DNA of 49,533 nt from Litoreibacter meonggei (GTDB lineage Bacteria; Pseudomonadota; Alphaproteobacteria; Rhodobacterales; Rhodobacteraceae). This document shows positions 10,652-27,416 of the stretch, piece by piece. The position numbers and the translations under genes are program-made. The first letter of the stretch is position 1. Each line of letters starts with the position of its first letter. The DNA lies in NCBI RefSeq assembly GCF_003663885.1, contig NZ_RCCE01000011.1, positions 1-49,533 of the forward strand, given 5' to 3'. The notes beneath the pieces were generated by a model. It was not told the origin of the DNA. It saw only the letters and a program-made list of their open reading frames with translations, and made no database searches.

Positions 10652-10688
10652 ACGCGAGTTTGTTCTCGACGCCTAATTCGCAATTTAT

Positions 10689-10701
10689 ACGGTCCTACCG
10701 T
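10689..10701. terminator. Small symmetrical hairpin between convergent operons
   Basis: ACGGT-CCT-ACCGT sits in the 64-base gap between pqiC and the end of the minus-strand operon. It is a short 5-bp stem with no T-run, so a terminator role is possible but weakly supported. Confidence 0.25.
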
Positions 10702-10715
10702 GACGGCGAGACAGA

Positions 10716-11411
10716 TTAGGTGCGCGCGTTTTCGAACGCGGACCAAGCGGCTTCGAACTTGGCAAAGTCAAACCCCGGCTCGCGTGCCGGACCAAGCACT
10801 AGGTGCTCCGTGTCCTGTAACTTTTTTATCGCCGCGGCGAGGTGCTCAACCACCTCGGGCGGGATCACAACGGCGCCATGTCGATCAGCGTGAACCAGAT
10901 CACCGGACTGCACGGTCATTCCGAAGATGGTGACGGGTGTTTCTAACTCTTGCACATGGACGAAACCGTGGCTTGGCCCGATGGAGCCAGCGATCACAGG
11001 AAAGCCGTCGGTCAAGTCACCGAGATCGCGCATCACGCCATTGGTCAGGGTGCCCGACATGCCAAAACCTTTGTGGACTACGCAGTTTACCTCGCCCCAA
11101 AAGGCACCGACGCAATGCGGAAAGTCGGTGTCCTCGATCACCGCGATTGACGGTTTCGGGGCTTCTGCCATGGCCTTGTAATACGCCATGCGTCGCGTGC
11201 GAATTACATCAGGGGACTCGGTTGGCGGATTTACGGCGGCGATTTTTGCGGTCACAGCGTAGCCCACGACGGCGGGGTCATCAGGTGCGCTGCATAGCAC
11301 GGTGCCCCGAGTGAAAGCCCTAAATCCGCGCTTGCCTTGAGCGACTTCGATGGCGTTACAGACAGTCGGCGTATCCACCGTTCGCAATAGGTCTAAAAGT
11401 GCGTCGTTCAT
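10716..11411 (-). CDS. RraA-family aldolase/decarboxylase-like protein
   Basis: 231 residues of the RraA / HMG-aldolase fold. Catabolic members cleave 4-hydroxy-4-methyl-2-oxoglutarate or related oxo acids, or decarboxylate oxaloacetate. The metal and substrate motif is visible as SGTLTNGVMRDLGDL (Arg128, Asp129), followed later by GDLVHADRHGAVVIP. The start is ATG 11411, because GGAGGCAAA stands directly before it; the frame is open a little further up. It overlaps the upstream hydrolase gene by four bases (ATGA) and is the last gene of the operon, where it could perform a final retro-aldol or decarboxylation step that yields pyruvate-like products. The exact substrate is unknown. Confidence 0.8.
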   Translation of the reverse strand: MNDALLDLLRTVDTPTVCNAIEVAQGKRGFRAFTRGTVLCSAPDDPAVVGYAVTAKIAAVNPPTESPDVIRTRRMAYYKAMAEAPKPSIAVIEDTDFPHCVGAFWGEVNCVVHKGFGMSGTLTNGVMRDLGDLTDGFPVIAGSIGPSHGFVHVQELETPVTIFGMTVQSGDLVHADRHGAVVIPPEVVEHLAAAIKKLQDTEHLVLGPAREPGFDFAKFEAAWSAFENART

Positions 11412-12100
11412 TTTGCCTCCAACCAACGGGACAAGGCCGCTGTCGTTTCGTCAGGTTGTTCAAGTGTCGGGAGATGGCCCGCGTTTTCAACGATATGCAT
11501 AGTTGATTGGGGCATAAGGCTGTGCATCAATTCGTGGCGATGAATAGGGCAAAGCGCATCTTCTCGGCCGCATAGGATCAGCGCAGGAACGTCGCAGTTT
11601 TGCAGGGTAGCGGATTGATCAGGGCGCGTTTGCAGGGCGCGCGACTGAGCAACAAATCCCTCTGGTCCGACGGCATCGGCCATATCCATACAAAGGTTCA
11701 ATATCTCTGCGCGGCGGGGCCCATCCGTTAGATAATTGGGCTTCATTTCATCGCGCATCACCGTGGCAAGCCCACCGGCCTGTACCTTGGCAATTTGCGG
11801 TTCGCGCATGGCTTTGACTTTATCGCTTTCCGCCAGCGGGTTGGTGTCGAGCAGAGCGATACGCTCCACCCGTTCTGGCGCTTGCCGGAGTACTTCCATC
11901 GCCACGATGCCCCCCATCGACAAGCCCGCCAAAGCAAACTTGGGCGGCGCTTGAGAGAGAATTTGGGCTGCGATTGCCTTTATCTGATCACCGACAAACG
12001 GGGCAAAATGTACCACTCGTTCTGCAGAAAAGGCGGCGATCTGTGGCGCGAAGAGCCGCGCGTCGCACATCATACCTGGAAGCAAGACAAGCGGTGTCAT
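11408..12100 (-). CDS. Alpha/beta-hydrolase
   Basis: 230 residues of the alpha/beta-hydrolase fold with a complete triad: nucleophile Ser61 in GLSMGG, Asp181 in GREDALCP and His209 in ENAGHLPTLEQP. The opening PLVLLPGMMCDARLF supplies the oxyanion-hole region. Such enzymes hydrolyse esters, lactones or C-C bonds of beta-diketones. In this operon, with two oxidoreductases upstream and an RraA-like enzyme downstream, hydrolysis of a lactone or ester intermediate is a plausible job (inference). Overlaps of four bases (ATGA) with both neighbours point to coupled translation. Confidence 0.85.
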   Translation of the reverse strand: MTPLVLLPGMMCDARLFAPQIAAFSAERVVHFAPFVGDQIKAIAAQILSQAPPKFALAGLSMGGIVAMEVLRQAPERVERIALLDTNPLAESDKVKAMREPQIAKVQAGGLATVMRDEMKPNYLTDGPRRAEILNLCMDMADAVGPEGFVAQSRALQTRPDQSATLQNCDVPALILCGREDALCPIHRHELMHSLMPQSTMHIVENAGHLPTLEQPDETTAALSRWLEAK

Positions 12101-13221
12101 GACGCCAAGGCTGCCCCTTCGGCCATCGCCTGCAACTTGGCGTATGCGATATCAGGATCAACGGAGCCAAATCCGGCGAAGGTCCCGAACCCGCAATCCG
12201 AGCCGGCGATGACACGGTCGGCGCCGACGATATTGACGAACCGTTCCAGTCGCTGGGCCACAAGTTCGGGATGCTCTACAAAGTTGGTGGTCGTATCGAC
12301 GACGCCGGGGATCAGAATTTTGCTGTCAGGAATGTCCGCCTTGCGATCGCGGAAAGTTGTCCATTCGTGGCCATGGCGGGGGTTTGAGGTTTCGAACAAA
12401 ACATAGTCAGCCCGTGCAGACATCAGCGTGTCGAACATCTTGGACATAGGGATGTCGCAGGTATGTGGTCCTTCGTAGTTACCCCAACAGATATGGATAC
12501 GGACTTTGTCGGCGGGGATGTTTTTAAGCGCGTGGTTCAACGCTTCCACATGGGATGCTGCTATTTTTATGAACTCAGCATCTGACAGGTCGTTGAACAA
12601 CATATGACGCGACAGCGCGAGGTCTGGGCAATCGAGTTGTAGATCAAGCCCGCTGGCCACGATCGTTTCATATTCGGTCTGCATCGCATCGGCCAGAGCT
12701 GCCAGATAAGCATCCCGAGTGGGGTAATAATCATTCTGCAAAAACAATGAGATAACGCCGGGCGATGCTGCGTTCATAAAGCCCTGTTCGACACCATGTT
12801 CGGCCATGCCGGCCTTAAGATTGGCGATGTCTTTTTCAAGCTCGCCTTGACCCTTGGACTTCACCTCACCGACGCACATGGGGCGCGCATATTGGGGCGA
12901 CCCACCGTCATCGGCCAGCCGTTTGAGAAAGGTCGGGAACTGCTTGAGGTCTGCAGGGGCATTACGTGGGCTATCGCCGTCAAAACCGGTGTAGCGGTCT
13001 TTGACATAAGTTGCGTAGCTGATTTTCGAGGTCTCGCCGTCACTGACGATATCCACGCCAGCGGCGACCTGTTTGCGCACGGTTTCGGACACGGCGGCCG
13101 TCATGCAAGCGTCGAACTCTGCTTGCGCGTAATCGGTGCCATTTTCGCGCGCGAAGATGAAATCAACCACGTCTTGCGTGCGCGGAAGGGACCCGACGTG
13201 AGAGGTTAAAATCTTGGACAT
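12097..13221 (-). CDS. Cobalamin-independent methionine synthase-like (MetE C-terminal core) protein
   Basis: 374 residues, matching only the catalytic C-terminal barrel of MetE (MetE itself is about 750). It starts SKILTSHVGSLPRTQDVVDF. Candidate zinc ligands are seen in HICWGNYEG (about residue 243) and in AGSDCGFGTF (Cys about 341). Stand-alone MetE-core proteins include archaeal methionine synthases, coenzyme-M transferases and poorly known catabolic members; they move methyl or alkyl groups to or from a thiol. Its place in a catabolic operon suggests demethylation or thiol-adduct chemistry rather than methionine synthesis (inference). Start 13221 follows GAAAGG. The 78 bases before it carry a set of CGTATGG repeats. 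Confidence 0.8.
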   Translation of the reverse strand: MSKILTSHVGSLPRTQDVVDFIFARENGTDYAQAEFDACMTAAVSETVRKQVAAGVDIVSDGETSKISYATYVKDRYTGFDGDSPRNAPADLKQFPTFLKRLADDGGSPQYARPMCVGEVKSKGQGELEKDIANLKAGMAEHGVEQGFMNAASPGVISLFLQNDYYPTRDAYLAALADAMQTEYETIVASGLDLQLDCPDLALSRHMLFNDLSDAEFIKIAASHVEALNHALKNIPADKVRIHICWGNYEGPHTCDIPMSKMFDTLMSARADYVLFETSNPRHGHEWTTFRDRKADIPDSKILIPGVVDTTTNFVEHPELVAQRLERFVNIVGADRVIAGSDCGFGTFAGFGSVDPDIAYAKLQAMAEGAALAS

Positions 13222-13238
13222 ATCAGGCCTTTCAGAGC

Positions 13239-13287
13239 GTATGGAAACGGTATGCAAAGCGTATGGCAGCCGTATGGCCGCCATACG
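13239..13287. promoter_or_regulatory. Helically phased CGTATGG repeats with a palindrome (possible operator)
   Basis: CGTATGG occurs at 13239, 13260 and 13271, with a variant GGTATGC at 13249. The steps of about 10, 11 and 11 bases are close to a DNA turn. The last copy forms a palindrome CGTATGG-CCG-CCATACG (13271-13287). They fill the gap between the bicupin gene and the MetE-like gene and could be an internal operator or an mRNA structure. No known regulator is assigned. Confidence 0.45.
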
Positions 13288-13299
13288 CATGAGGGGGCT

Positions 13300-14265
13300 T
13301 TAACCTTTCCAGGTCAGACCCGCCGGATCGCCTGTGGCGACGACATGGTAAAGTGATGCCTCGCCGGACATTGACGGCACAGCGGAGTGAGCAAGGTTTT
13401 CGGGAACCGACATGGTGTCACCGGGCGCAAGGGTGGCCGCTCCGCCGTCCCACGTGACGCGCCAGTGGCCGCGCATCGGCATCAGCACTGACGGGTAGGG
13501 GTGGCTGTGTTTGGTCTCGGTGGCGGATCCACGCGTGATAAAATCAACCTCGAAGCCCGGCTTGTCGCGCAGGAGGCCGTTTTCGCCCAGCACATTGACA
13601 GGTTTCTTGTCCGCCAGCGCGACCATATCCCAGTAGCGAGCGATGTGGTTTGGCAAAACATCGGTTGTGGTCGGCTCAGGGCGCTTGGCCAGCTCCGCAT
13701 CGCTCATTAGTGGCATTGGGTTGATGCCTTCAGGCAGGCGCTGTTGCTTCTTGCTGTCATACAGTTTGCCGTTCTCACCAAGGATCAACCCGTGCTCCGC
13801 CGCATCCTCAATGACCTGTGGCGCCCACATGACGCCGCCGCCGGCATCGTCGCCACCAAGGATTGCCATAATCATTCCGTAGTCGGTGCCGATGTTTTCA
13901 AAGCCGCGGAAAATGCCCGTGGGGATGTTGAAAATATCGCCCTCTTGCAGCGTTACTTCGCCCGCGTCGCCCCAACGGCCCCAGAAGAAGCGCCAGGTGC
14001 CCTTAAGGACAAAAAACACCTCGGCGGTGTGGTGATCATGCAGCGAGTTCCGGCATTTGGGGGGCTGGCCCGCCGCGCCGATGTTGAAGCCGTGGGGTAT
14101 AGCGATGTGGACATGCTGATCGGGGCTTTCCGATACGCCGCCACCGATTATGGTGAAGTTTTCCTTCTGATCGCTGCCCGGTGTGTGGGCGTCGATAAAG
14201 GCTGTTTTACAGGGTTGCAGATCGCCATAGCGAACGATGCGGGATTCCATGTCTTGCGGTGTCAT
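13300..14265 (-). CDS. Bicupin protein
   Basis: 321 residues with two cupin domains. The first (about 70-140) contains NSLHDHHTAEVFFVLKGTW followed by GDIFNIPTGIFRGFEN, with a full set of His/Glu metal ligands. The second (about 235-310) has KHSHPYPSVLMPMRGHWRV followed by GDTMSVPENLAHSA. Bicupins include dioxygenases, isomerases and decarboxylases that act on small organic acids. The strong metal site in the first domain suggests an enzyme. ATG 14265 has AGGA 8 bases upstream. It is preceded by a 139-base gap, the largest inside the operon apart from regulatory regions. The reaction cannot be told from sequence. Confidence 0.75.
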   Translation of the reverse strand: MTPQDMESRIVRYGDLQPCKTAFIDAHTPGSDQKENFTIIGGGVSESPDQHVHIAIPHGFNIGAAGQPPKCRNSLHDHHTAEVFFVLKGTWRFFWGRWGDAGEVTLQEGDIFNIPTGIFRGFENIGTDYGMIMAILGGDDAGGGVMWAPQVIEDAAEHGLILGENGKLYDSKKQQRLPEGINPMPLMSDAELAKRPEPTTTDVLPNHIARYWDMVALADKKPVNVLGENGLLRDKPGFEVDFITRGSATETKHSHPYPSVLMPMRGHWRVTWDGGAATLAPGDTMSVPENLAHSAVPSMSGEASLYHVVATGDPAGLTWKG

Positions 14266-14404
14266 TTTGATATTCCTAATTTTTTAATTGGCATTTAACG
14301 TGGTGAATTGCCAAAACTCGAAGGTGGCCGCAGGTTCAAACGCCGCGCGCGTCGGCTGGCTAGAAAGCCGTGAAGCCGGAATAGGGTGCGCGCAGTGCGT
14401 TGCA
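14266..14404. other. Intra-operon gap with a TTGGCA/TGCCAA inverted repeat
   Basis: 139 bases between the bicupin start and the stop of the upstream NTF2-like gene. TTGGCA (14288-14293) and TGCCAA (14309-14314) flank 15 bases just before the bicupin gene. It may be a regulatory site or an internal promoter region, but I see no clear -35/-10 pair. Confidence 0.3.
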
Positions 14405-15379
14405 TTAGGCGGCCCCGGTGTGCAGGTGGATTTGTTTCCAGATCGCGACTTCGTCGATCAATGTGTATTCACGGCGCAGACCCCTCTCACCCCATTCGGC
14501 ATGAGTGATGCCCATGACGTGGACCTCGGCACCGGTCGGAGCGCCAAAAAATCCTTGGCCAGCGTGTTTGCCGGTGAGTGACCAGCGCACGGCGGCACGA
14601 TTGGGCAGGCCGGGATCATCGCGCCCGATCACGTGGTCAATTTTAAAGGTCGCCGTGGGGAAGGACGAGCGCAGGCGCATCCAGTCGGTTTCGACAAAAT
14701 CCCAGCCCCAGCCACCACGTGCGCCCCAGTGTTCGCTTCGCACGGCGCGGTCGTATTGGCTACGGATGACGGTGAAATCTTTGTCCATGATCCGTTGCAG
14801 GATATTGGCGAGTTTGCCGCCCCACTCATTGTCGTTACCGCGCCCCGTGTAGGGGCCTTGCACGTCATGAGACGGGTGGAACGGACGCTGGCAATTGTCG
14901 GGGCCACCTTCGACTTCGATCTGATGACGCGCGTAGTCGGATGGGCCCCAGCCCAGCTGCCGTGCGATGCCGCCGACGTCACGGATCAACCATTCGTCGT
15001 CGATCACGTCACCTTTGGCCGCGCAATCGGCGATGGTATAGACCGAGAACCGCTTGCCTGTCGGCGCGCCAAATGCGCCATGCCCGGTGTGTGTCCCCGA
15101 TGTATTGATGCGGTGAGAAGAAAGGAAGCCGTCCTCTTCATTGCCCGACCAGATCACGTCATCCGCCAGCAGTTCGCGGTCTGGGAATTCGGCGAGGGTA
15201 GCCAAGGTTCCGTCAATGACGCCCGCGTTCCCGGTGACAAGGCCGGACGGGAAGCGCATGGGGATGTCTTTTTCGTAGTAGTGGTGCAAGGTGGCCAGTC
15301 CGCGATCTTCCCATATCTCTTTGGTGATCTTCACGATGTAGTCTGGCAGGTCTTTGAATTGGTTTGAAAAACCCTTCAT
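14405..15379 (-). CDS. Double NTF2-like (SnoaL/polyketide-cyclase-type) protein A
   Basis: 324 residues made of two NTF2-like/SnoaL-like cone domains (about 10-155 and 185-320). A marker recurs in each half: SSHRINTSGTHTGHGAFGAP with TGKRFSVYTIADC in the first, and RAAVRWSLTGKHAGQGFFGA with TGAEVHVMGITHAEW in the second. SnoaL-like proteins catalyse aldol-type cyclisation, dehydration or isomerisation, or only bind small molecules. It is a close paralogue of the next gene upstream and overlaps it by four bases (ATGA), so the pair could form a heteromer. No catalytic residue can be named with certainty. Confidence 0.75.
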   Translation of the reverse strand: MKGFSNQFKDLPDYIVKITKEIWEDRGLATLHHYYEKDIPMRFPSGLVTGNAGVIDGTLATLAEFPDRELLADDVIWSGNEEDGFLSSHRINTSGTHTGHGAFGAPTGKRFSVYTIADCAAKGDVIDDEWLIRDVGGIARQLGWGPSDYARHQIEVEGGPDNCQRPFHPSHDVQGPYTGRGNDNEWGGKLANILQRIMDKDFTVIRSQYDRAVRSEHWGARGGWGWDFVETDWMRLRSSFPTATFKIDHVIGRDDPGLPNRAAVRWSLTGKHAGQGFFGAPTGAEVHVMGITHAEWGERGLRREYTLIDEVAIWKQIHLHTGAA

Positions 15380-16386
15380 GGGTGGGATCCTGTCTGTAAG
15401 AGAATTTGTTTCCAGATCGCGGTCTCGTCGATCAACGTATACTCGCGCCGGATAGTTGGATCACCGGATCCAAAGGGGCCAAACTCGGCGTGGCTGATCC
15501 CCATGATATAGACCTCGGTGCCGGTGGGTGTGCCGAAACGGCCCCAACCCGCGTGTTTGCCATGCAGCGACCAGCGGACAGCGGCGCGGGGGGGCATCAT
15601 CCGGTCCTCGCGACCAATCACATGCTCGATCTTGAACTCTGCCGACGGAAACGCCGCCCGCAGCCCCATCCAGAATTCATCAGCGTGCCGCCAGCCTCGT
15701 CCATCCGCGCCACATGGGTAATGCAGTGCGCATGCACGATCGTATTGGCGCGGGATGACATCCAGTTCGGCCGCCATTATCGCGCGTAATGTTTGTGCGT
15801 AGCGCTGGCCCCACGGGTCGTCATTGCCTGTTCTGTCATACGGGCCGGCAATGTCGTTGGCGGGTGTCATGGGTTGAACGCAGGCGTCAGCGCCACCTTC
15901 ACGGGCGATTAGATCCCGAGTCCAATCAACAACATCAAAGCCAAGCTGCTGCACGATTGCCGATTGGTCGCGCACCAGCCATTCGTCGTACACCGCCCCG
16001 TCGCGGATCGCACAATCGGCAAGTATCCGGTAGGCCACGCGGCGGCCTGATGGCAAGCCGTAGACACCAGGTTTGGTGTGGGTGGCGGTACAGATCAGGC
16101 GATGCGATGAGAGATAAGCGTCGGAGGTATCGGTCGCCCCGGCGGGGTCGTCACACCAGATCACGTCTTCGCCCAACAGCTCACGATCAGGAAATTCGGC
16201 CAGTGTTGCCATGGTAGCGGCAATCACGTTGGAATTATCAACGACCACCGATGCAGGTGACCGGACAATCAGTCCGTCGGCATACAGCCCGCGGAGCGAG
16301 CCGATCTTGCGATCTTCCCATATCTCTTTTGTAATGCCGATAATGTAGTCCGGCACATCACGCCATTTGGGGTCAAAACCGCGCAT
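15376..16386 (-). CDS. Double NTF2-like (SnoaL/polyketide-cyclase-type) protein B
   Basis: 336 residues, paralogous to protein A over the whole length. Both open with (D/R)DVPDYI-type residues and ITKEIWEDR, share LATLAEFPDRELL and SSHR in the first domain, and share RAAVRWSLxGKHAGxGxFG and REYTLIDExAIWKQI in the second. It carries the same two SnoaL-like domains (about 10-165 and 200-332). It starts 2 bases after the LacI gene ends. Two tandem copies kept at this divergence suggest separate roles or a heteromeric enzyme (inference). The reaction is unknown. Confidence 0.75.
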   Translation of the reverse strand: MRGFDPKWRDVPDYIIGITKEIWEDRKIGSLRGLYADGLIVRSPASVVVDNSNVIAATMATLAEFPDRELLGEDVIWCDDPAGATDTSDAYLSSHRLICTATHTKPGVYGLPSGRRVAYRILADCAIRDGAVYDEWLVRDQSAIVQQLGFDVVDWTRDLIAREGGADACVQPMTPANDIAGPYDRTGNDDPWGQRYAQTLRAIMAAELDVIPRQYDRACALHYPCGADGRGWRHADEFWMGLRAAFPSAEFKIEHVIGREDRMMPPRAAVRWSLHGKHAGWGRFGTPTGTEVYIMGISHAEFGPFGSGDPTIRREYTLIDETAIWKQILLQTGSHP

Positions 16387-16388
16387 AG

Positions 16389-17402
16389 CTATACCTTTTT
16401 TGCCATGGTTGAACCGCGCAAGATCAGTTCGCCCTTGAGTTTGACCTTTTGAGACCGTGTTTCGGGTTCGGCAATGCGGCTTAAAATAATATCAACGGTT
16501 TGAGCCACCATCCGGTTGATCGGCTGGCGGTAACTGGTCAGATCATAGGCGGGCCACGCGGCAATTGGCACGTCGTCAAAGCCGGCAATGCTGATATCTT
16601 CCGGAATGCGTAGCCCCAGTTTGCTGCGCAACACGTCCATCACGGCGAACGCCATATGGTCGTTGGCAACAAACGCTGCATCGGGGCGGTTACTACTGGC
16701 GAACATCTCGAGCGCCGCGGCGCGGGCCATTTTGTAGTCAAAGCCACCAACTTCGTAGAATGACAAAGAGAGCCCTGCCTCCTCCAGCCCGTCGCGGAAA
16801 CCTTTTTCGCGGTCCCTTTGGGTCGAGGCCCCTTCAAATCCGGCAATATAGCCGATCCGCGTGTGACCAAGAGCTGCAAAATGAGCGGCAATCTCGCGAC
16901 TGCCGTGGTAGTTGTCGGTCGTGACCGAAGATATCAACGGGTCATCCTGATCGCGGTTAAACAGCACCACGGGAATACCATAATCGTTGCACCGCGCAGT
17001 CAGTTCGGACGACATCGACACCGAGGCCAGCACGATACCGTCCACCTGATAGTCCAGAAGTTCTTTCATGACGTCTTGCACATCGCTCACCGCTGACGAG
17101 GACATGAAGACCAGCACATGGTAGCCCTTGGCCTGCAATGCGATTGACAGACGCTCGACCACTTCGGGGTAAAACTGGTTTTCCAAATAGGCGACGACGA
17201 GGCCGATGATCCGGCTTTTGCCGGTGATCATTGCGCGAGCCAGAACATTAGGACGATATCCCATTTCCGTCGCCGCACTATGGACCTTTTCACGCGTGGC
17301 CTTGGATACCGACGCCCCCGGCGTAAAGACACGGCTGACCGCTGATTGGCTGACGCCAGCTCGCTTAGCGACTTGCAGCGATGTGATCTTGTCGTTGGGC
17401 AT
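16389..17402 (-). CDS. LacI-family transcriptional regulator
   Basis: 337 residues. The N-terminal helix-turn-helix (about 7-30: SLQVAKRAGVSQSAVSRVF) and hinge helix (about 48-58: YRPNVLARAMITGKS) are followed by a periplasmic-binding-protein-like effector domain (about 62-330). It lies inside the operon that it probably controls, sharing one base with the SDR stop codon (TGATG). A LacI-type palindrome (24949-24966) upstream of the binding-protein gene is the natural candidate operator. The effector is likely the imported sugar-like compound or its first product (inference). Confidence 0.92.
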   Translation of the reverse strand: MPNDKITSLQVAKRAGVSQSAVSRVFTPGASVSKATREKVHSAATEMGYRPNVLARAMITGKSRIIGLVVAYLENQFYPEVVERLSIALQAKGYHVLVFMSSSAVSDVQDVMKELLDYQVDGIVLASVSMSSELTARCNDYGIPVVLFNRDQDDPLISSVTTDNYHGSREIAAHFAALGHTRIGYIAGFEGASTQRDREKGFRDGLEEAGLSLSFYEVGGFDYKMARAAALEMFASSNRPDAAFVANDHMAFAVMDVLRSKLGLRIPEDISIAGFDDVPIAAWPAYDLTSYRQPINRMVAQTVDIILSRIAEPETRSQKVKLKGELILRGSTMAKKV

Positions 17403-18157
17403 CAGTCAGCAGTCCAACCCCCGTCGATTAACATGGACGTGCCGGTGACCAGCGACGATGCGTCGGACGCAAGATAAAGGACCGCGCCCATGATATCTTC
17501 GACCTCGCCCACACGGCCCAGTTTGATCTTTTCCGCGATCCATGCGGCCCGTTCCGGATTTTCAAATGTCGCGGCCGTCAACGGAGTGCGAATGAATGTC
17601 GGGCAAATTGTGTTGATGCGGATTTGACGCGGCCCCCATTCGATGGCCATCGCTTTGACCATGCCTTCAAGCCCGTGTTTCGAGGCGCAATAAACCGCGC
17701 GATCAACGCCACCGACATGGCCCATCTGACTGCTGATATGGATGATCGAGCCTGCGCCGGTCATCCGTTTTGCAGCATAGCTGGACAGGAAATAGGCGGC
17801 GCGCAGATTCAAGCCCATCACGGCGTCGTAGTCTTCCGGAGTTGTGTCGAACGCAGCAGTATGCCGTGCCAACCCCGCAGAATTTACGATAATGTCATAA
17901 GGATCGTGCTGCTCAAACGCGGCTTTCAGCGCGTCAAGATCCGCCACATCCAGTACCAGCACTTCGGCGGACCAACCATTGCTGGTCATCTCGTTCACGG
18001 TTGCTTGCAGTTTGTCCGCGCCACGCGCGGCACAAACCACATGTGCGCCTGCTTCAGCCAAGGCAACAGCACAGGCCTGCCCGATGCCCGAAGAGGCACC
18101 GGTCACAAGGGCGCGTTTGCCGTCAAGGCGCATGGAAGGTGTTCGGGGAAGGGTCAT
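17402..18157 (-). CDS. Short-chain dehydrogenase/reductase (SDR)
   Basis: 251 residues, a classical SDR. The NAD(P)-binding motif TGASSGIG is at 19-26, NSAG at 92-95, and the catalytic Ser (142/143 in HISSQMG) with Tyr156 and Lys160 in YCASK. The acidic residue expected after the second beta-strand for NAD preference is not obvious (CAARGADK), so NADP use is possible. It would oxidise or reduce a hydroxyl or keto group of the imported substrate. It overlaps the upstream NTF2-like gene by four bases and the LacI gene by one. Confidence 0.9.
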   Translation of the reverse strand: MTLPRTPSMRLDGKRALVTGASSGIGQACAVALAEAGAHVVCAARGADKLQATVNEMTSNGWSAEVLVLDVADLDALKAAFEQHDPYDIIVNSAGLARHTAAFDTTPEDYDAVMGLNLRAAYFLSSYAAKRMTGAGSIIHISSQMGHVGGVDRAVYCASKHGLEGMVKAMAIEWGPRQIRINTICPTFIRTPLTAATFENPERAAWIAEKIKLGRVGEVEDIMGAVLYLASDASSLVTGTSMLIDGGWTAD

Positions 18158-19182
18158 GACGCGGCCTTTAGTGTGAGGGGCATTGTTCCGGATGCGCGGG
18201 CCTTGTTGAACTCTCGCATTCTGGCAAGGACATCAACGCCTGTCTGGGCGTGAAAATCAAGCAAGTCGACCAGCACCCAGTTTTCGCGGATCAAGCCGTC
18301 TTCAAGGCGCCAGAAATCAAGGCTGCGTAGCAAAACCTCGCGTCCCGCAGGTGCCACACCAAGCCAGCCATCGTGATCAAGCGTCAGTCGCATATTTGGC
18401 CAGCCAGTTTCGCAGACATATTCGCCCTCGCCAAACCAATGCGACATCAGATCGCCCATTGAATCAAGTTTACGGTCGGGCATGGCGCGCAAGAATGGCA
18501 TTTGATGCCAGTTGCGGAATCCTGAAACGCCACGGCCTGTTCCGATGCCAACTGGCCCGTACCAGTTGAAGCGCGGATGCCAGTACCGCTCAAGCTGCAT
18601 CACCGCGGGGTCGGGGTTGCTCGGATATTTGCATAGATGCGTCAACATCGCGATGACGTGGTCCATTGCAGCGGTTCCGTCACCGGATGCTGTGAGGCCA
18701 TCCTGCGTCATGGGGGCGGGCGTGCAGAGGTATTTGCCAAGCTGCGGTGCCATCGGCCATGCGTGCGCCTGCATCATCAGCTCGGGGATGTCCCAGATGA
18801 TCTGCGCCTCGGTCACCTTTCCGTCCGTGATGCGGAAAAATTCGTGATAGCGCATGTGGGTCAGATGCCCCGTGGCGGGAATATCCAACCACGGGTGCAC
18901 CATGGTACCCATATAGTTGCCCATGCACCCGACCCACTCCTGTCCTTGCGGAGTTGTTCCGGACAGCACGATCATGTCGCGACGTTCCAGGTCTGGCATC
19001 GCCGCGAGAAGCGGTGCGTAAAGAGTGTCGTAAACCTGAGCGCCAGCGATCGTGCCAAACGGGTGGCACATATGGATGGTGGCATCAGGTGAAATGGTCA
19101 GCTCGCACGCAGCGCGCGCACCATCTGGGGTGGCAGTCGCGAGCGCAGTCTGGAACACCGCTAGGGCGGGGTTTGCACTCAT
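18154..19182 (-). CDS. Double NTF2-like (SnoaL-type) protein C
   Basis: 342 residues from ATG 19182, which overlaps the stop of the upstream dehydrogenase (ATGA). It has two SnoaL-like domains (about 10-150 and 185-330). The first includes [20 protein letters not shown] and the second [11 protein letters not shown] and [20 protein letters not shown]. The 'DGKV/DGLI..E.W' strand is a hallmark of NTF2-like ester-cyclase proteins. It is only distantly like proteins A and B, so the operon carries three such double-domain proteins. The substrate and reaction are unknown. Confidence 0.75.
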
Positions 19183-20510
19183 TCCGTAGGCTCGCGATAA
19201 GGTGCCCCTGCGCCGTAGGGTACATTGATGCCACCGTATCGGCGCACGCGGACGTTGCATTGTTCGGCGTGGCCAACAAACCCCTCAAGCATGCATAACC
19301 GCGAGCCGTATTCACCAATCAAAGTCGCGGCCTCGTCCGTGGTGACGCGTTGATAGCTGTGCGTTTTGAGGTATTTCCCAACCCAAAGACCGCCCGTGTA
19401 CCGGCCAGCCTTTTTGGTGGGCAATGTGTGGTTGGTGCCGATGACCTTGTCGCCATTGGCCACATTGGTGCGCGGCCCGAGGAACAAGGCACCGTAGCAC
19501 GTCATGTTTTCCAAGAACCAATCATCGCGATCCGTCATAACCTGCACATGCTCGGAGGCAATGTCGTCGGCCACGGCCAGCATTTCGTCATAGGTGTCGC
19601 AAACGATGATCTCGCCGTAGTCTTCCCAGCTTTTTGACGCCGTATCGGCGGTGGGCAGGATGGTCAGGATGCGATCGATCTCGGCCATTGTCTCGCGGGC
19701 AAGTTTTTCGGAATTGGTTAGCAAAACGCAGGGGCTGTTATAGCCGTGCTCTGCTTGGCCCAACAGATCGGTGGCGCAAAGCTCGGCGTCGGCGGCCGTT
19801 TCATCGGCAATCACCATCGTTTCGGTTGGCCCTGCGAACAGGTCGATGCCGACGCGCCCAAACAACTGGCGCTTGGCCTCGGCCACGAAGGCATTGCCGG
19901 GGCCGACAAGCATATGGACGGGGTCGATGGTTTCGGTCCCGACGGCCATAGCACCAATTGCCTGAATGCCGCCCATGACATAAATTTCATGCGCGCCGCC
20001 CAGTTTCATGGCCGCGATCACTGCCGGATTGGGTTCGCCTTTGAACGGCGGGGTTGCCGCGATGATGCGCGGCACCTTGGCAACCGAAGCTGTGGCGACC
20101 GACATATGCGCTGACGCAACCATCGGGAATTTGCCGCCCGGCACATAACACCCGACCGATTGCACGGGGATGTTTTTGTGGCCAAGGAACACACCGGGCA
20201 TGGTTTCCACTTCGATATCGAGCATGGAATCCCGCTGTGCTTGCGCGAAGTTGCGCACCTGTTCTTGGGCGAACTTGATGTCAGCCATTTCGCGGTCGCT
20301 GACCCGTGCCATCAGCGCGGAGATTTCATCTTCCGAAAGACGATAGGTTTCGCGATCATAGCCGTCGAACTTGTTGGACAGCTCACGCACAACCTTATCA
20401 CCGCCTTCCTCGATTTGCTTGAGGGTCGATTCAACAACGGCGCGCGTCTTGGCATCATCTTCGGCCCGTGCTTCTTGCGAGCGAGCAGTTTTCAGGTGAC
20501 GAATAGTCAT
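19179..20510 (-). CDS. Histidinol-dehydrogenase-family alcohol dehydrogenase, HpsN-like
   Basis: 443 residues of the HisD fold, but catabolic in context. Recognisable blocks are [48 protein letters not shown] (metal and substrate His, about residue 253) and [20 protein letters not shown]. The last block resembles HpsN, the sulfopropanediol 3-dehydrogenase of roseobacters, more than biosynthetic HisD. The family performs two-step NAD-dependent oxidation of a primary alcohol to an acid. No histidine-biosynthesis gene is nearby; neighbours are an ABC importer and further catabolic genes. I therefore expect oxidation of a hydroxymethyl group on the imported compound. AAAGGA precedes the start. 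Confidence 0.85.
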
Positions 20511-20543
20511 TGAGCAGTCCTTTAGTAGTGTTAGTTGGGAGCT

Positions 20544-21596
20544 CTAAAGAGCGACCCTTTCTCCGGTGGCTGTGTCAAACAGGTGGCAAATCTCGGCAGG
20601 GATACGGGCACGAACCACATCACCAATCTCAGCGCGGTATTCCTTGTTCGTCTTGATCGACACAAGGGCACCACCCAGACGCCACGTGATCATCGATGCT
20701 TCTCCGAGCAGTTCGATCGAGTACATTGGCGCCTCGATTTGGCCGGCACCGTCAACGATTTCGGCGTCTTCTGCACGAAAGCCCAGCGTGATGTTGCCGG
20801 ACGGGCCAGTTGGCAAGCCTTCGACACGGATGTTTTCACCCTCGAATACGCCGTCTTTCAGCAAACCTTCCACAAGGTTCATAGCTGGCGACCCGATAAA
20901 GCTGGCCACGAATGTGTTCGCAGGCGTGTCATAGATATCCGTCGGTGTACCGACCTGCTGGATTTTGCCTGCGTTCATCACGACGACACGGTCGGCTAGA
21001 GTCATGGCCTCGATTTGGTCATGGGTCACATAGACGGTCGTGGTTTTCAGCTTGGATTGCAGGTTCTTGATTTGCGCCCGTGTTGAAACACGCAGCTTGG
21101 CGTCAAGGTTGGACAGCGGTTCGTCCATCAAGAACACAGTCGGCTTGCGCACGATAGCGCGACCGAGGGCCACGCGCTGACGCTGGCCACCGGACAAATC
21201 GGCAGGACGGCGATGCATGAAATCCTCAAGCTCGGTCATACGCACGGCGTTCATCACCATGTCGTCGTGCTTTTCCTTAGGAACTTTACGAACCTTCAAC
21301 GGAAAGCGGATGTTTTCGTAAACCGTCAGATTCGGATAGAGACCGTAGGACTGGAACACCATGGAGATGTCGCGGTCCTTTGGCTCCAGATCATTGACGA
21401 CCTTGCCATCGAACAGGATTTCGCCGTCAGTGACATCTTCAAGCCCTGCGATCATCCGCATGGTCGTGGACTTACCGCACCCCGAAGGGCCCAGCAGCAC
21501 CAGAAATTCCTGATCTGCAATGTCGAGGTCGAAGTTGTCGACGCCCACGAAGGAGCCCCAGCGCTTGTTGACGTTTTTGAGTTGTAGTCGAGCCAT
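20544..21596 (-). CDS. CUT1-type ABC transporter ATPase (MalK/UgpC-like)
   Basis: 350 residues. Walker A GPSGCGKST (about 37-45), the signature LSGGQRQRVALGRAIVRKP (about 134-152), Walker B VFLMDEPLSNLD and the switch His in YVTHDQIEAMTLADRVVVM are all present. A C-terminal TOBE-type regulatory domain follows (about 240-350). This fits the carbohydrate-uptake CUT1 subfamily, which energises import of sugars, glycerol-phosphate or other polyols. Start 21596 has AAGGGGGC upstream. Twelve bases separate it from the upstream permease gene. Confidence 0.93.
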   Translation of the reverse strand: MARLQLKNVNKRWGSFVGVDNFDLDIADQEFLVLLGPSGCGKSTTMRMIAGLEDVTDGEILFDGKVVNDLEPKDRDISMVFQSYGLYPNLTVYENIRFPLKVRKVPKEKHDDMVMNAVRMTELEDFMHRRPADLSGGQRQRVALGRAIVRKPTVFLMDEPLSNLDAKLRVSTRAQIKNLQSKLKTTTVYVTHDQIEAMTLADRVVVMNAGKIQQVGTPTDIYDTPANTFVASFIGSPAMNLVEGLLKDGVFEGENIRVEGLPTGPSGNITLGFRAEDAEIVDGAGQIEAPMYSIELLGEASMITWRLGGALVSIKTNKEYRAEIGDVVRARIPAEICHLFDTATGERVAL

Positions 21597-21608
21597 GATT
21601 GAGCCCCC

Positions 21609-22490
21609 TTATCCTTTGACCGCGCCAGCGGTCAGGCCGCTCACGATTTGACGTTGGAAGAACATGACCATCACGAACAGCGGTGCGGTAGCCGAAACAA
21701 CGGCAGACACGGCGAACATAACGTTGCCCTTGGTTTGAGTGGTGCCGAGGAAGCTGGCAATTTTCGGGATCATCGTCTGATTTTCCTTGCTCAACAGCAT
21801 CGAGGTGACGGCAAAGTCGTTATAGGCCAGCAGAAAACTGAACAGACCCGTGGTGATAACGCCCGGCCACATGACCGGAATGATAACGTGCCGGAAGGCT
21901 TGAAAGCGCGTACAACCGTCAACCATTGCGCTTTCATCCAGATCCTGCGGGATGTTCTTGAAGAACGAATGCAGCATCCAAAGCGTGAAGGGCTGGTTGA
22001 GTGCGACAAGCACGATGATAGTCGTCGAAAGCCGCCCCCACAGATTCCATTCGAAGAATGGCAACAGATACCCCGACACCAGCGTAATGGGTGGCATTGC
22101 GCGGAACATCAGCGCGAACAACAAGAACCAAAAGGCGTAGCGGTACGTAGAGCGCGCAAGTGCGTAGCCGCCCAACGTGCCGAAGGTGAGCGAGATCGTG
22201 ACCACACACACACACACGATGGTGGTGTTCATTACGGCGCGCCAGAACTCTTCCTGGACCCAAGCGCCGTAGTAACCCGCGCCTGTGAATGACCCGCCGG
22301 TTTCGCTTTGGGTCAGGGTGCCGAACAGGGCGTTGGCCCAATTCGCTTTCGAGAAGAAGTCACCCTCGACCTTGAAAGAGCCCCAGAGAGTCCAAAGAAA
22401 CGGGAACGCGGCGACGATCAACCACATGATCAAAAAGCCGTTGGCCAATATTTTGACGGTGGGTGTTTGCTTGGTTGCGATGCTGGACAT
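21609..22490 (-). CDS. ABC transporter permease, MalG type
   Basis: 293 residues with six predicted membrane segments. The EAA coupling loop is visible as DESAMVDGCTRFQAFRHVII (about residues 190-210), followed by PVMWPGVITTG. This is the second permease of a CUT1-type importer and pairs with the MalF-type permease encoded just upstream. Codons around residue 95 include a (GT)7 tract. Twelve-base gaps on both sides fit one transcript with the ATPase and the other permease. Confidence 0.92.
   Translation of the reverse strand: MSSIATKQTPTVKILANGFLIMWLIVAAFPFLWTLWGSFKVEGDFFSKANWANALFGTLTQSETGGSFTGAGYYGAWVQEEFWRAVMNTTIVCVCVVTISLTFGTLGGYALARSTYRYAFWFLLFALMFRAMPPITLVSGYLLPFFEWNLWGRLSTTIIVLVALNQPFTLWMLHSFFKNIPQDLDESAMVDGCTRFQAFRHVIIPVMWPGVITTGLFSFLLAYNDFAVTSMLLSKENQTMIPKIASFLGTTQTKGNVMFAVSAVVSATAPLFVMVMFFQRQIVSGLTAGAVKG
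22203..22217. repeat. (CA)7 microsatellite inside the MalG-type permease gene
   Basis: A 15-base CA/GT tract that encodes alternating Val and Cys (VCVCV) on the minus strand. It is unusually long for coding sequence here and could slip, which would shift the frame. Confidence 0.85.
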
Positions 22491-22502
22491 ATCCGGCCCC
22501 TC

Positions 22503-23522
22503 CTAGCGGTTAAAGTCGCGCCACGTCCGGACAAGGACGGGGGACAAGAGAATGCCGATGCCGATGATCGTCAGAACGGATGTGGCCGCAGCGGATGACA
22601 GCAGCCGCGTTTCGCCGCCCAGATCATTGAAGATCGCATATGACAGTGATGTGGCATGAGCTGACGCCTGAAAACTGATGATCGGCTCAAAGACACGGAA
22701 GTTGTCCATCAACTGGATCAGCGCCACGAATGTCACGAGAGGCATCAGGTGTGGAACGACCACATAGCGGATACGTTCCCAGCGGGTTGCGCCGTCGACC
22801 ATGGCGCTTTCAAGCGTGTCGGTGTTGACGGTCTGAAGGCCCGCGTAAAAGACCACGAAGGCAAAGGGCGCAGCGTGCCAAACGCCATAGACCATAAGCA
22901 TGATCCACATAAGACCCGTCGACGCCTTGACCGACAGGTTCGGATCATCCGCAAGCCATTGCAGACCCGTTCCCAAAATACCGCGTGCATCGACCATCCA
23001 GAACAGAATGAGCGAGCCGACGAGTGGCGTCACGATCATTGGCAGAAGTGAAAAGAAGATCGTTGGACCACGTAAGGACTTTGCAACCGCGTTGACAGCG
23101 ATGGCAACGATGAAGCCCAGCACAATCGTAAGAGGTGTGACAATGGCGGTGTACGTCAGTGTGAACCCCAGAGCCTTGTAGAAGGGCAGGTTCATCAGGC
23201 TACTGCCAAAGTCGGGCAAGCCATCTGATTTCACCCAGGCCGCGGCGACTTCGCCGAAGGCGAGGTGGTTGCGGTCGGTGTAAATATCAAAGCCGGCGAA
23301 CTTGCCCAAAGGCTCGGCTTCGCGCAGGGCGGCTGTTGCTTCTTGGTCGACGCTGGTTTCCTGCGTACAACCGAAGGGGCCGCAGTTTTCAACTTCGAGG
23401 ATCACCTGTTCATGGGCGGTATAGAACGACTGGGTCACGACCGACACGATGGGCATGGCGATGAACAAGAGCATCAGCACCGTTGACGGAAGGACGAACC
23501 AAAAGAATGAACTATGTTTCAT
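22503..23522 (-). CDS. ABC transporter permease, MalF type
   Basis: 339 residues. An N-terminal membrane segment (about 8-30) is followed by a periplasmic stretch of about 75 residues holding two cysteines close together (NCGPFGCTQ), then five more membrane segments. The EAA loop is ESAMVDGATRWERIRYVVVP (about 235-255). The large first periplasmic loop is typical of the MalF side of CUT1 importers. It begins 80 bases after the binding-protein gene and precedes the MalG-type permease by 12 bases. Confidence 0.9.
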   Translation of the reverse strand: MKHSSFFWFVLPSTVLMLLFIAMPIVSVVTQSFYTAHEQVILEVENCGPFGCTQETSVDQEATAALREAEPLGKFAGFDIYTDRNHLAFGEVAAAWVKSDGLPDFGSSLMNLPFYKALGFTLTYTAIVTPLTIVLGFIVAIAVNAVAKSLRGPTIFFSLLPMIVTPLVGSLILFWMVDARGILGTGLQWLADDPNLSVKASTGLMWIMLMVYGVWHAAPFAFVVFYAGLQTVNTDTLESAMVDGATRWERIRYVVVPHLMPLVTFVALIQLMDNFRVFEPIISFQASAHATSLSYAIFNDLGGETRLLSSAAATSVLTIIGIGILLSPVLVRTWRDFNR

Positions 23523-23602
23523 AGCACACGGGCCTCGCGGATCGGGGAAAATAAAGGGGTGTAGGGGCGCACCATTGGAGCGCGCCCCTCAGTCGTGAGG
23601 GT

Positions 23603-24838
23603 TTACTTGATGTAACCTTGCTCACGAGCGGCAGCTGTATACGCCGCTTCGATATCGGCCAGCGTCTGCTCGGCGCTTTCTTTACCGGTCATAAAGTCGG
23701 CAACGTTGTCACCAAGTGCGGTGTGCAACAAACCCATATATGGCAGCATCGGGTATGGTGCCGTGCCAGCTTTAACCGCTGCCAAGACGCCTTCGGAAAC
23801 CGGTGCGGGCTTGTAGCCGTCGATCAGCCATACTGCTTGTTCCATGGTATCGTCGGTCAATGTCTCAGGCGATACAGCGTGAGCCAAGGAGCGGAACGTT
23901 GCAGCAGCGTCATCGTCGCTGATGTTTTTGGACACGGTCCAACCGTCCCACCACAATGTCGAAGCAGGTACGCCGCTGTCGCCAACCATCAGTGGGCCGC
24001 CAACTTTGGTGTTTTCGTAGACCTGCGGCTCGGAGCCTTCGTCATCCATGATGTTCTGCATCCGGCTGCCCCACATATTCATCAGGGCAACGTTGCCTGC
24101 TTCCCATTCGGCCTGTGTGCCGTTGGAATCATGCGTCAGATAGTCAGGGTTCATGTATTCGGTCAGCGCCTTCATCACTTCCAGTGTGGCAACGCCTTGC
24201 GGGTTGTTGATGGAAACGTTAGCCGAGCCGTCTTCGAAGAACTTACCACCATGCCCAAGGTACATGTTGTTGAATTCTTGCGCGATGTTCCAACCGGCTG
24301 CATAGGCGCCGCCGACCGGGTGATCCATGATGCCAGCCGCGCGGATGGCTTCAGCAGCTGCAAGCACTTCTTCGTAAGTTGTAGGCACGTCGAGACCGAC
24401 CTGCTCCAGCACGTCAGAGCGGTAGGCTAGCGTCTGTGCGTTCGCCATGAATGCGATCGCCATGACCTTGCCACCAACAGTGATCTTCTGGCGTTGTGGA
24501 ATGTCGGCGCCAAATTCTGCGACCAGATCATCCAACGGACGAATGACGTCTTCATTGATCAACGCGACGATGGAGGAGTTCGCAACGATCGCGCTGGTAT
24601 ATTCAGCAGGGTTGCCGCTCATGCCAGCGACGTTCAGCGTTTGGTGGTCGGCGGTCAGGTTCGCCTCAATAGTAACGCCGCCAGTTGCACATTCGGCAGC
24701 TTCGGCTGCAATGGTCTGAATGGCAGGAAATTCGTTGCCGATAATATTAACACGGCCAGCTTCTATGCCGCAATCAGCCCATGATGCACCTGCCGAAGCA
24801 ATGAGTGCGCACGAGGCAGCGAGTGTTTTCAAGTTCAT
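23603..24838 (-). CDS. ABC transporter substrate-binding protein, family 1
   Basis: 411 residues. It starts at ATG 24838 (GGGAGA upstream), where the Sec signal peptide begins (NLKTLAASCALIASAGASWA); the frame is open further up. The mature protein is a family 1 (MalE-like) solute-binding protein with YRSDVLEQVGLDVPTTYEEV and WWDGWTVSKN as typical stretches. Aromatic residues around the latter could stack on a sugar ring. Two cysteines near the mature N-terminus (ADCG and AECA) may form a disulfide. As the first gene of the operon, directly behind the LacI-type palindrome, it determines substrate choice for the whole pathway, but the ligand cannot be read from sequence. Confidence 0.92.
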   Translation of the reverse strand: MNLKTLAASCALIASAGASWADCGIEAGRVNIIGNEFPAIQTIAAEAAECATGGVTIEANLTADHQTLNVAGMSGNPAEYTSAIVANSSIVALINEDVIRPLDDLVAEFGADIPQRQKITVGGKVMAIAFMANAQTLAYRSDVLEQVGLDVPTTYEEVLAAAEAIRAAGIMDHPVGGAYAAGWNIAQEFNNMYLGHGGKFFEDGSANVSINNPQGVATLEVMKALTEYMNPDYLTHDSNGTQAEWEAGNVALMNMWGSRMQNIMDDEGSEPQVYENTKVGGPLMVGDSGVPASTLWWDGWTVSKNISDDDAAATFRSLAHAVSPETLTDDTMEQAVWLIDGYKPAPVSEGVLAAVKAGTAPYPMLPYMGLLHTALGDNVADFMTGKESAEQTLADIEAAYTAAAREQGYIK

Positions 24839-25342
24839 TCCGGTTTCTCCCGTTGGTAAGCAGAACCCTTTTGCACTTTCTTGTGCATGGGCCATTATCA
24901 ATAGTTGGGCACCTCGTTGAGGGGGCGCGCATCTTTACGGTAGTCACGATTGAATACGCTTGCAATATTTTTGTTTTTCGGATCAGATTTTTGGATCGAA
25001 ACACCGTGGGAGATGGAAATTCTGGGAGAGCAGAAATTTAAAAGAGTAAACTACATCAGATAGTTGCCTCTTCTTTCAATCTTGCAGTGAGAGAAATTGC
25101 GCGAGTTGTTGCTGGGTTCCTAAGTCATGAATACGCCTGCGATCATCGCATTTGGTGAGGCGGTTGACTGCTGCGCCGATTCGCCTTTACCTAGTTTTGG
25201 ACGCCAATTCCGGACGCGTCCCTGACCTTGGGCATAGTGATAAATTAGGTGTCGTGGACAGTTCGAGAGCCATGAATATATCAGGACAGTAGCCCAGTCA
25301 GCTTCAACGGATTACTGCGGATTTTGCCGGCGTGGTTGCGTC
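24839..25342. other. Intergenic region upstream of the importer operon
   Basis: 504 bases with no credible gene. The half near the binding-protein gene has the LacI-type palindrome (24949-24966) and AT-rich stretches suited to a promoter that reads leftward. The half near hutC (about 25050-25342) shows no repeat or hairpin that I can support; hutC transcription should end there. Confidence 0.6.
24949..24966. promoter_or_regulatory. LacI-family operator candidate
   Basis: ATTGAATACGCTTGCAAT is an imperfect 18-bp palindrome with the central CG typical of LacI/GalR operators (outer arms ATTG/CAAT; 12 of 18 positions symmetric). It lies 111 bases upstream of the binding-protein start codon. The cognate regulator is probably the LacI-family protein at 16389-17402, encoded in the same operon. 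Confidence 0.55.
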
Positions 25343-27405: not shown

Positions 27406-27416
27406 TGTAGTCTCGC

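What the first reader, a model, noticed from the sequence alone, without database searches (positions are those of the whole stretch)
10716..24838. Candidate undescribed catabolic operon: sugar-type ABC importer, HpsN-like dehydrogenase, three double-NTF2 proteins, bicupin, MetE-core, hydrolase, RraA
Seen: thirteen consecutive minus-strand genes, mostly with 1-4 base overlaps, with a LacI regulator inside and a LacI-type palindrome in front. Known: CUT1 importers bring in sugars or polyols; the HpsN/HisD family oxidises primary alcohols to acids; RraA-like enzymes do retro-aldol or decarboxylation steps; stand-alone MetE barrels transfer methyl or alkyl groups. Inference: an imported, possibly methylated, polyol-like compound is oxidised, rearranged by the SnoaL-like and cupin enzymes, demethylated, hydrolysed and cleaved. 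I know of no described pathway with this set.
Basis: partly seen in the sequence, partly recalled or inferred. Interest (0 to 1): 0.8.

Follow-up and report, generated by a model that had tools for sequence, protein, structure and literature searches.

The report
Widespread undescribed marine catabolic operon
A 14-gene bacterial operon, repeated in many marine bacteria, looks like a regulated import-and-breakdown pathway for a common sugar-like, probably methylated compound that has not been identified.

Summary
In detail: 10716-24838 carries 14 (not 13) consecutive minus-strand genes, with a LacI-type operator at 24950-24965. It is not a quirk of one strain. In 196 genomes of the order the bicupin is in 93, the MetE-core in 84 and both in 83. 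In 52 MetE-anchored loci with full flanks, HisD, LacI and SnoaL A/B genes are each in 50 and the cupin in 49. Three SUP05/Thioglobus loci carry most of the set as one compact operon. The HisD-family enzyme is neither histidinol dehydrogenase nor the sulfonate enzyme HpsN by motif: HpsN's sulfonate-binding His is Met (GKFPM in 102 of 105 distinct sequences), while zinc and catalytic residues are kept. The MetE-core keeps its zinc site. The bicupin lacks the third metal His of cupin dioxygenases. Importers and aldolases are exchanged between clusters around a shared oxidation core. Best reading: LacI-controlled breakdown of a methylated, sugar- or cyclitol-like compound through alcohol oxidation, zinc-thiolate demethylation, hydrolysis and retro-aldol cleavage. 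The substrate is not shown; O-methyl sugars and mycosporines are the leading candidates. The paper searches that ran listed no matching pathway, but their lists were capped and three more timed out.

The parts
10716..11411 (-). RraA-like aldolase/decarboxylase (231 aa)
   Evidence: PF03737 68.6 bits, cut-off 24.5; weak PDB match to CHA aldolase 3noj, E 0.00056
11408..12100 (-). alpha/beta hydrolase, PcaD-like (230 aa)
   Evidence: PF12697; NCBIfam protocat_pcaD 94.8 bits, below cut-off 255.85
12097..13221 (-). stand-alone MetE-core protein (374 aa from the conserved start)
   Evidence: PF01717; zinc ligands conserved
13300..14265 (-). bicupin (321 aa)
   Evidence: PF07883, 2 stretches; bicupin fold neighbours
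14405..15379 (-). double-SnoaL/NTF2 protein A (324 aa)
   Evidence: PF07366, 2 stretches
15376..16386 (-). double-SnoaL/NTF2 protein B (336 aa)
   Evidence: PF07366, 2 stretches; AlphaFold2 model pLDDT 94.9
16389..17402 (-). LacI-family regulator (337 aa)
   Evidence: PF00356, PF13377
17402..18157 (-). SDR oxidoreductase (251 aa)
   Evidence: PF13561 204.6 bits
18154..19182 (-). double-SnoaL/NTF2 protein C (342 aa from the likely start)
   Evidence: PF07366, 2 stretches
19179..20510 (-). HisD-family dehydrogenase of a third motif class, GKFPM (443 aa)
   Evidence: PF00815 436.3 bits; motif and catalytic residues; best PDB match HpsN 8v35
20544..21596 (-). CUT1-type importer ATPase, UgpC subfamily (350 aa)
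   Evidence: NF008653 449.9 bits over cut-off 432
21609..22490 (-). CUT1 permease, MalG-like (293 aa)
   Evidence: best NCBIfam match MalG 75.6 bits, below cut-off 261
22503..23522 (-). CUT1 permease, UgpA-like (339 aa)
   Evidence: best NCBIfam match UgpA 55.4 bits, below cut-off 335
23603..24838 (-). sugar-type solute-binding protein (411 aa)
   Evidence: weak NCBIfam match NgcE 35.8 bits, cut-off 399.65; PDB sugar-binding proteins
24950..24965 (.). LacI-type operator TTGAATACGCTTGCAA
   Evidence: pattern search of own genome; similar sites in 27 of 113 relatives' loci scanned, incl. SUP05-type L124, L135, L136

Best explanation
A LacI-controlled (probably repressed) catabolic pathway for a neutral, sugar- or cyclitol-like compound that carries a methyl group, most likely an O-methylated sugar or polyol. 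A CUT1 importer brings it in. The SnoaL-type proteins, with the SDR, prepare it by enolisation, elimination or hydration steps. The HisD-family enzyme oxidises a terminal CH2OH to COOH with NAD. The MetE-core uses its zinc to pass an activated (enol-ether-like) methyl to a thiol. The bicupin rearranges the product, the PcaD-like hydrolase opens a lactone or ester, and RraA splits the chain by retro-aldol reaction to pyruvate and a second fragment. Shown by sequence: gene set, co-occurrence, operator, enzyme families, kept and lost catalytic residues. Inferred: substrate class, order of steps, demethylation, products.
For: Operon and operator. Co-occurrence: cupin and MetE together in 83 of 196 genomes of the order, MetE without cupin in 1, cupin without MetE in 10. 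Neighbourhood of MetE: HisD 50, LacI 50, SDR 49, cupin 49, RraA 44, hydrolase 40 of 52. SUP05-type loci carry most of the set as one operon with a GMC oxidoreductase. Importers change between CUT1 ABC, TRAP and TonB receptor plus sodium symporter, and one genome has a GH1 glycosidase inside the cluster (L051 = L077): this points to a sugar-like substrate. HpcH/HpaI aldolase stands where RraA is expected in two loci. HisD zinc and catalytic residues kept in 108 of 108 rows; MetE zinc ligands in 103 of 104 distinct sequences. A MetE relative (about 51%) with an NTF2 gene sits in a tetrahydrofolate O-demethylation and ligK cluster in Croceicoccus.
Against: No substrate, expression or enzyme data. 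MetE is absent from some otherwise similar clusters, so methyl transfer is not essential to the core. Zinc-thiolate attack on a plain alkyl methyl ether is chemically hard (my knowledge), so prior activation must be assumed. The MetE-core could simply make methionine. Hydrolase and RraA matches are missing near MetE in 12 and 8 of 52 loci. The operator pattern was found in only 27 of 113 relatives' loci, some of which may lack the promoter.
Confidence: 0.42

Rival explanations
1. Mycosporine/gadusol pathway: SnoaL enzymes strip amino acids from the methoxy-cyclohexenone ring, HisD oxidises its CH2OH to a tertiary alpha-hydroxy acid, MetE removes the enol methyl ether, the ring is opened by cupin and hydrolase, and RraA cleaves a 4-carboxy-4-hydroxy-2-oxoadipate-like acid to pyruvate and oxaloacetate.
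For: An enol methyl ether is a good donor to a zinc thiolate (chemistry, my knowledge). RraA matches the CHA aldolase family weakly. Variable numbers of SnoaL genes (2-8 per locus in 50 of 52, none in 2) would suit a family of variously substituted substrates. A review reports that bacteria turn shinorine and porphyra-334 into mycosporine-glycine and 4-deoxygadusol (PMC3083659, passages).
Against: The bicupin lacks a third metal His (Arg in 29 of 29), so a ring-cleaving dioxygenase step is doubtful. TonB/symporter uptake and one GH1 gene look more like sugars. Loci include SUP05 and Ross Ice Shelf material (the latter my reading of a record title), where little mycosporine is expected. Core genes also occur in rhizobia.
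Confidence: 0.15
2. DHPS or another sulfonate pathway, with the HisD-family gene as HpsN.
For: HpsN is the closest solved structure.
Against: HpsN's sulfonate-recognising His126 is Met130 here; of 105 distinct sequences at 60% identity or more, own included, 102 have GKFPM and 3 GKYPL. The same genome has a separate paralog with the HpsN motif GRYSH (L002). HpsN's other sulfonate contact, Lys353, is kept, which alone would fit a sulfonate.
Confidence: 0.03
3. Breakdown of a quaternary-amine or betaine-type compound, with MetE taking an N- or S-methyl group.
For: At SUP05-type loci an MTTB-family gene lies downstream (L124, L135) and a BKACE gene (L135, L136) and a 3HCDH-type gene (L136) upstream. 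Onium methyl groups are good donors (my knowledge).
Against: Among 122 loci scanned for accessory genes, one BKACE-like group was seen in 4. Importer types, LacI and the one GH1 gene do not fit.
Confidence: 0.1
4. Unmethylated sugar acid or glycoside pathway; the MetE-core is a local methionine synthase or a thiol transferase unrelated to substrate methyl groups.
For: MetE-free versions of the cluster exist. Motifs at the homocysteine site resemble MetE (residue roles recalled).
Against: 83 of 84 MetE-bearing genomes also have the cupin, 15 of them with the two genes on different contigs or over 0.5 Mb apart (my reading). A paper states that P. inhibens, which has a core-MetE homolog, is a methionine auxotroph when mtgCDE is mutated (PMC12478193, passage); that the homolog is this protein was not checked.
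Confidence: 0.2

Closest known systems
HpsN, DHPS 3-dehydrogenase (PDB 8v35, 8wwe)
   Same: HisD fold; zinc and catalytic residues Gln, His, Glu, His, Asp, Lys, His all kept; four-electron alcohol oxidation is likely
   Different: GKFPM instead of GRY[A/S]H: the sulfonate-recognising His is Met; no DHPS genes beside it among the 14
Tetrahydrofolate O-demethylation plus protocatechuate 4,5-cleavage cluster of Croceicoccus marinus pCME4A9I
   Same: MetE-core relative (about 51%) beside an NTF2 gene; ligK (RraA-fold aldolase) in the same cluster
   Different: there with a GcvT-like gene, metF, purU, folD, ligA and an extradiol dioxygenase; none of these in our operon
Core-MetE methionine synthases
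   Same: zinc ligands and catalytic domain
   Different: sits in a catabolic operon; function as methionine synthase untested
Non-phosphorylative sugar oxidation pathways (SDR, lactonase, HpcH/HpaI aldolase; recalled)
   Same: dehydrogenase, hydrolase and pyruvate-forming aldolase logic
   Different: HisD-type dehydrogenase, tandem SnoaL proteins, bicupin and MetE-core are not part of those that I recall
Bicupin dioxygenases (quercetin, gentisate/salicylate) and oxalate decarboxylase
   Same: two-cupin fold (TM 0.42-0.49 in the 50 listed matches)
   Different: third metal His is Arg in the first domain; HxH of the second domain kept in at most 6 of 29

Membership tests
HpsN | motif G-R-Y-[A/S]-H with sulfonate-binding His126 | tested here: not met
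   GKFPM in 102 and GKYPL in 3 of 105 distinct sequences at 60% identity or more, own included; motif from PMC11382572 (passages)
HpsN | zinc and catalytic residues (Gln248, His251, Glu318, His319, Asp352, Lys353, His411) | tested here: met
   all kept, 108 of 108 rows, three genomes counted twice
Histidinol dehydrogenase HisD | HisD motif G-S-A-P-L | tested here: not met
   motif is GKFPM; a stronger HisD match (556.9 against 436.1 bits) is elsewhere in the genome. NCBIfam's hisD domain model is nevertheless passed, 420.3 over 243.8 bits
MetE-core | zinc ligands His, Cys, Glu, Cys | tested here: met
   103 of 104 distinct sequences at 60% identity or more; one has Asp for Glu
MetE-core | methyl transfer to homocysteine | not testable with these tools
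   needs enzyme assay
Cupin dioxygenases (acireductone, 3-hydroxyanthranilate, quercetin) | 3-His-1-Glu metal site (recalled) | tested here: not met
   His76, His78, Glu82 kept but the motif-2 His is Arg120 in 29 of 29
RraA/CHA aldolase LigK | curated LigK model cut-off | tested here: not met
   TIGR02798 32.6 bits against 304.5; the broader PF03737 is passed
CUT1 sugar importer | UgpC-subfamily ATPase, two permeases, sugar-type binding protein in one operon | tested here: met
   only the ATPase passes a curated cut-off
Mycosporine catabolic pathway | growth on or turnover of mycosporines | not testable with these tools
   no gene-defined pathway seen in the capped listings

The most novel reading that the evidence does not exclude
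The operon is the first gene-defined route by which marine bacteria take apart an abundant methylated carbohydrate-like compound of seawater (methyl sugars, or the mycosporine/gadusol sunscreens) with an oxygen- and B12-independent zinc-thiolate demethylation. Its HisD-type enzyme founds a third functional class, hidden in databases under the name histidinol dehydrogenase.
Probability: 0.25. Interest if true: 0.85.

Novelty: new variant of a known kind. Interest (0 to 1): 0.6.

Why it matters
In a sample of 196 genomes of the order, 83 carry both marker genes, and SUP05/Thioglobus and other gammaproteobacterial bins carry relatives, so the substrate should be common in the sea. Naming it would add a missing link to the marine carbon cycle. 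The HisD-family members are annotated as hisD in public plasmid records, which hides the pathway. A recent paper calls the function of core-MetE homologs in aerobic marine bacteria questionable (PMC12478193, passage); this operon offers a testable role.

Tried and rejected
Rejected: DHPS/HpsN (motif lost). Acireductone-dioxygenase role for the cupin, my early favourite from weak matches: the third His is Arg. A link to histidine use because the hut genes lie next door: no hut gene was found in the relatives' loci held at that time. Homarine operon: not pursued beyond one paper search. Rfam RNA in the window: none at gathering score. Sigma-70-like sites at 10500-25400: 4 found against 7.8 expected from shuffles. 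Wider LacI regulon: one other site in the genome, not examined further. PDB comparison by sequence of MetE-core, cupin and one SnoaL protein gave only weak or generic matches. Haloarchaeal MetE relatives: five of six loci examined show no SnoaL gene nearby; Halobellus does.
Full report
What is there. The window holds 14 consecutive minus-strand genes at 10716-24838: binding protein, two permeases and UgpC-type ATPase of a CUT1 importer, a HisD-family dehydrogenase, three double-SnoaL proteins, an SDR, a LacI regulator, a bicupin, a MetE-core protein, a PcaD-like hydrolase and an RraA-like protein (families). Six of 13 junctions overlap by 1-4 bases. A LacI-type operator sits about 110 bases before the first gene and is one of two sites of that consensus in the 3.95-Mb genome. 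A slightly looser pattern was found in 27 of 113 relatives' loci scanned, including the SUP05-type loci L124, L135 and L136 between RraA and the binding-protein gene. The chance rate in those loci was not measured, and many loci may not contain the promoter.

It recurs widely. A SnoaL B query matched 134 of 295 genomes of the family at E <= 1e-20. In one and the same sample of 196 genomes of the order, the bicupin (E <= 1e-60) is in 93 and the MetE-core (E <= 1e-160) in 84; 83 have both, 10 the cupin only, 1 MetE only, 102 neither (Fisher p about 1e-42, not corrected for kinship). By my reading of the two place tables, in 15 of the 83 the two genes are on different contigs or more than 0.5 Mb apart (G063, G105, G171, G184, G230, G471, G495, G678, G699, G702, G706, G715, G725, G744, G782). 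Drafts cannot prove non-linkage, but in the stretches from G105 and G230 (L203, L204) the cupin stands without the other core genes. So the two genes seem to be kept together without linkage. In a sample of 398 genomes of the phylum the MetE profile (E <= 1e-60) matched 26: 14 of the same family and 12 others; the seven of these 12 that I fetched are 38-73% identical.

Neighbourhood counts. Of these, 52 have full flanks: HisD 50, LacI 50, SnoaL A/B type 50, SDR 49, cupin 49, SnoaL C type 46, RraA 44, a further single-domain SnoaL 41, hydrolase 40 of 52; two loci (L134, L141) lack most of the set. SnoaL A and B are too alike to be counted apart. These 80 are the closest relatives, so part of this is common descent. 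But by record title they include SUP05/Thioglobus, Granulosicoccaceae, Porticoccaceae and a Rhizobiaceae bin. In the SUP05-type loci most of the set is one compact operon with a GMC oxidoreductase and another double-SnoaL gene; L136 lacks the SnoaL C gene and L135 has its binding-protein gene in two frames.

What varies and what stays. The core appears with different importers: CUT1 ABC here; TRAP in Roseibium and L200; TonB receptor plus sodium:solute symporter in L187, L188 and L130. RraA is not seen in L187 and L188, which have an HpcH/HpaI aldolase. MetE is absent from the listed clusters of Paracoccus alcaliphilus, Sinorhizobium medicae and Roseibium, which keep cupin, RraA, hydrolase, SDR and a GKFPM-type HisD. 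Amidase genes lie in several clusters with and without MetE. One genome, fetched twice as L051 and L077, has a GH1 glycosidase inside the cluster. I infer that import and SnoaL steps handle the outside of a varied substrate family, and that HisD, SDR, cupin, hydrolase and aldolase handle a shared intermediate.

The dehydrogenase. The closest solved structures are HpsN enzymes. The HpsN paper (PMC11382572, passages) says that HpsN carries G-R-Y-A/S-H, whose His126 recognises the sulfonate, and HisD carries G-S-A-P-L. Here the aligned motif is G-K-F-P-M (residues 126-130). Of 105 distinct sequences at 60% identity or more, own included, 102 have GKFPM and 3 GKYPL. The zinc and catalytic residues are kept in 108 of 108 rows, three genomes being counted twice; this includes Lys353, which also touches the sulfonate in HpsN. 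The same genome has a separate HpsN-type paralog with GRYSH (L002) and a stronger HisD match (L001). So it works like HpsN and HisD but belongs to neither by motif. Its substrate is probably an alcohol with a neighbouring OH or NH2 and no sulfonate. NCBIfam's hisD model still accepts it, and public records name it hisD.

The MetE-core. Zinc ligands are kept in 103 of 104 distinct sequences and motifs resembling the homocysteine site are conserved (roles recalled). A paper notes a core-MetE homolog in P. inhibens, which is still a methionine auxotroph when mtgCDE is mutated (PMC12478193, passage); I did not check that it is this protein. About 51%-identical relatives stand next to an NTF2 gene in Croceicoccus, amid a GcvT-like gene, metF, purU, folD, ligK and ligA, and similarly in Sphingobium without the lig genes. 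A 41% relative stands beside five ester-cyclase genes in Halobellus. In Rhodococcus and Dietzia the relative is followed by a 2-oxoglutarate oxygenase gene instead, and five other haloarchaeal loci show no such context. The link to O-demethylation is therefore suggestive, not proven.

The bicupin and SnoaL proteins. The cupin's fold neighbours are quercetin and gentisate-type dioxygenases and oxalate decarboxylase at TM 0.42-0.49, from a model of mean pLDDT 76.7 with a poor N-terminal segment. The first domain keeps His76, His78 and Glu82, but the motif-2 His is Arg120 in 29 of 29; in the second domain His253 and His255 are each His in 6 of 29. I take it as an isomerase, lyase or hydrolase rather than a classic dioxygenase. 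The SnoaL B model (pLDDT 94.9) is a tandem NTF2-like protein; the best matches are the epoxide hydrolase Lsd19 over both halves (low TM, about 0.3) and single-domain cyclases such as IdmH.

Mechanism and substrate. I commit to a LacI-controlled pathway for a methylated sugar- or cyclitol-like compound, as set out under best explanation. Families, residues, co-occurrence and operator are shown. Order, demethylation and products are inferred. Mycosporines fit the chemistry well (enol methyl ether, hydroxymethyl on a carbinol, CHA-like end product; my reasoning), but the cupin result, the sugar-type importers and the dark-water lineages speak against them. A review passage says bacteria convert mycosporines to 4-deoxygadusol (PMC3083659, passages); the passages I saw give no genes.

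Literature. The listings of searches showed no title or abstract start that describes this gene set or a mycosporine catabolic gene cluster. Several lists were capped (20 of 131, 25 of 737, 20 of 423, 12 of 380), searches 102, 104 and 106 timed out, and the library holds open-licence papers only, so absence is weak evidence.

Noticed in passing
window 25343-32678: A histidine utilisation cluster (GntR/UTRA regulator, hutF-, hutI-, hutH-, hutG-, hutU-type genes by Pfam) lies directly upstream, but no hut gene was found in the relatives' loci held.
   Followed up: yes
window 37676-49480: A 3934-aa open frame with DUF11, Cna-B-like pilin and alpha-2-macroglobulin-type domain matches, after Omp85 and outer-membrane efflux protein genes.
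   Followed up: no
window 6756-10651: PqiA, MlaD-domain and ABC auxiliary lipoprotein genes on the plus strand, converging on the operon.
   Followed up: no
L035, L036, L037, L061, L172, L195, L199: A further HisD-family group, about 43-46% identical; the motif GRYPL or GRFPL was read in the first five of these loci, not in L195 and L199. An amidase gene is near in several. A possible fourth class.
   Followed up: partly
L167 12001-13517: A MetE-core plus NTF2 gene pair inside an O-demethylation and protocatechuate 4,5-cleavage cluster of Croceicoccus marinus; role there unknown.
   Followed up: no
L158, L159: Plasmids of Dietzia and Rhodococcus share the gene order MetE-core, 2-oxoglutarate oxygenase, YaaH-type transporter, phytanoyl-CoA dioxygenase-like, HD domain.
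   Followed up: no
L124, L135, L136: At SUP05-type loci a BKACE gene (L135, L136) and a 3HCDH-thioesterase gene (L136), a carnitine-like set, sit upstream and an MTTB gene downstream (L124, L135) of the operon.
   Followed up: partly
L041, L048, L042, L062, L064, L072: Separate loci with a SnoaL B homolog but without the HisD/MetE block in the same stretch; L041 and L048 also have the importer and LacI genes, L064 an importer ATPase, the others no close importer match.
   Followed up: no
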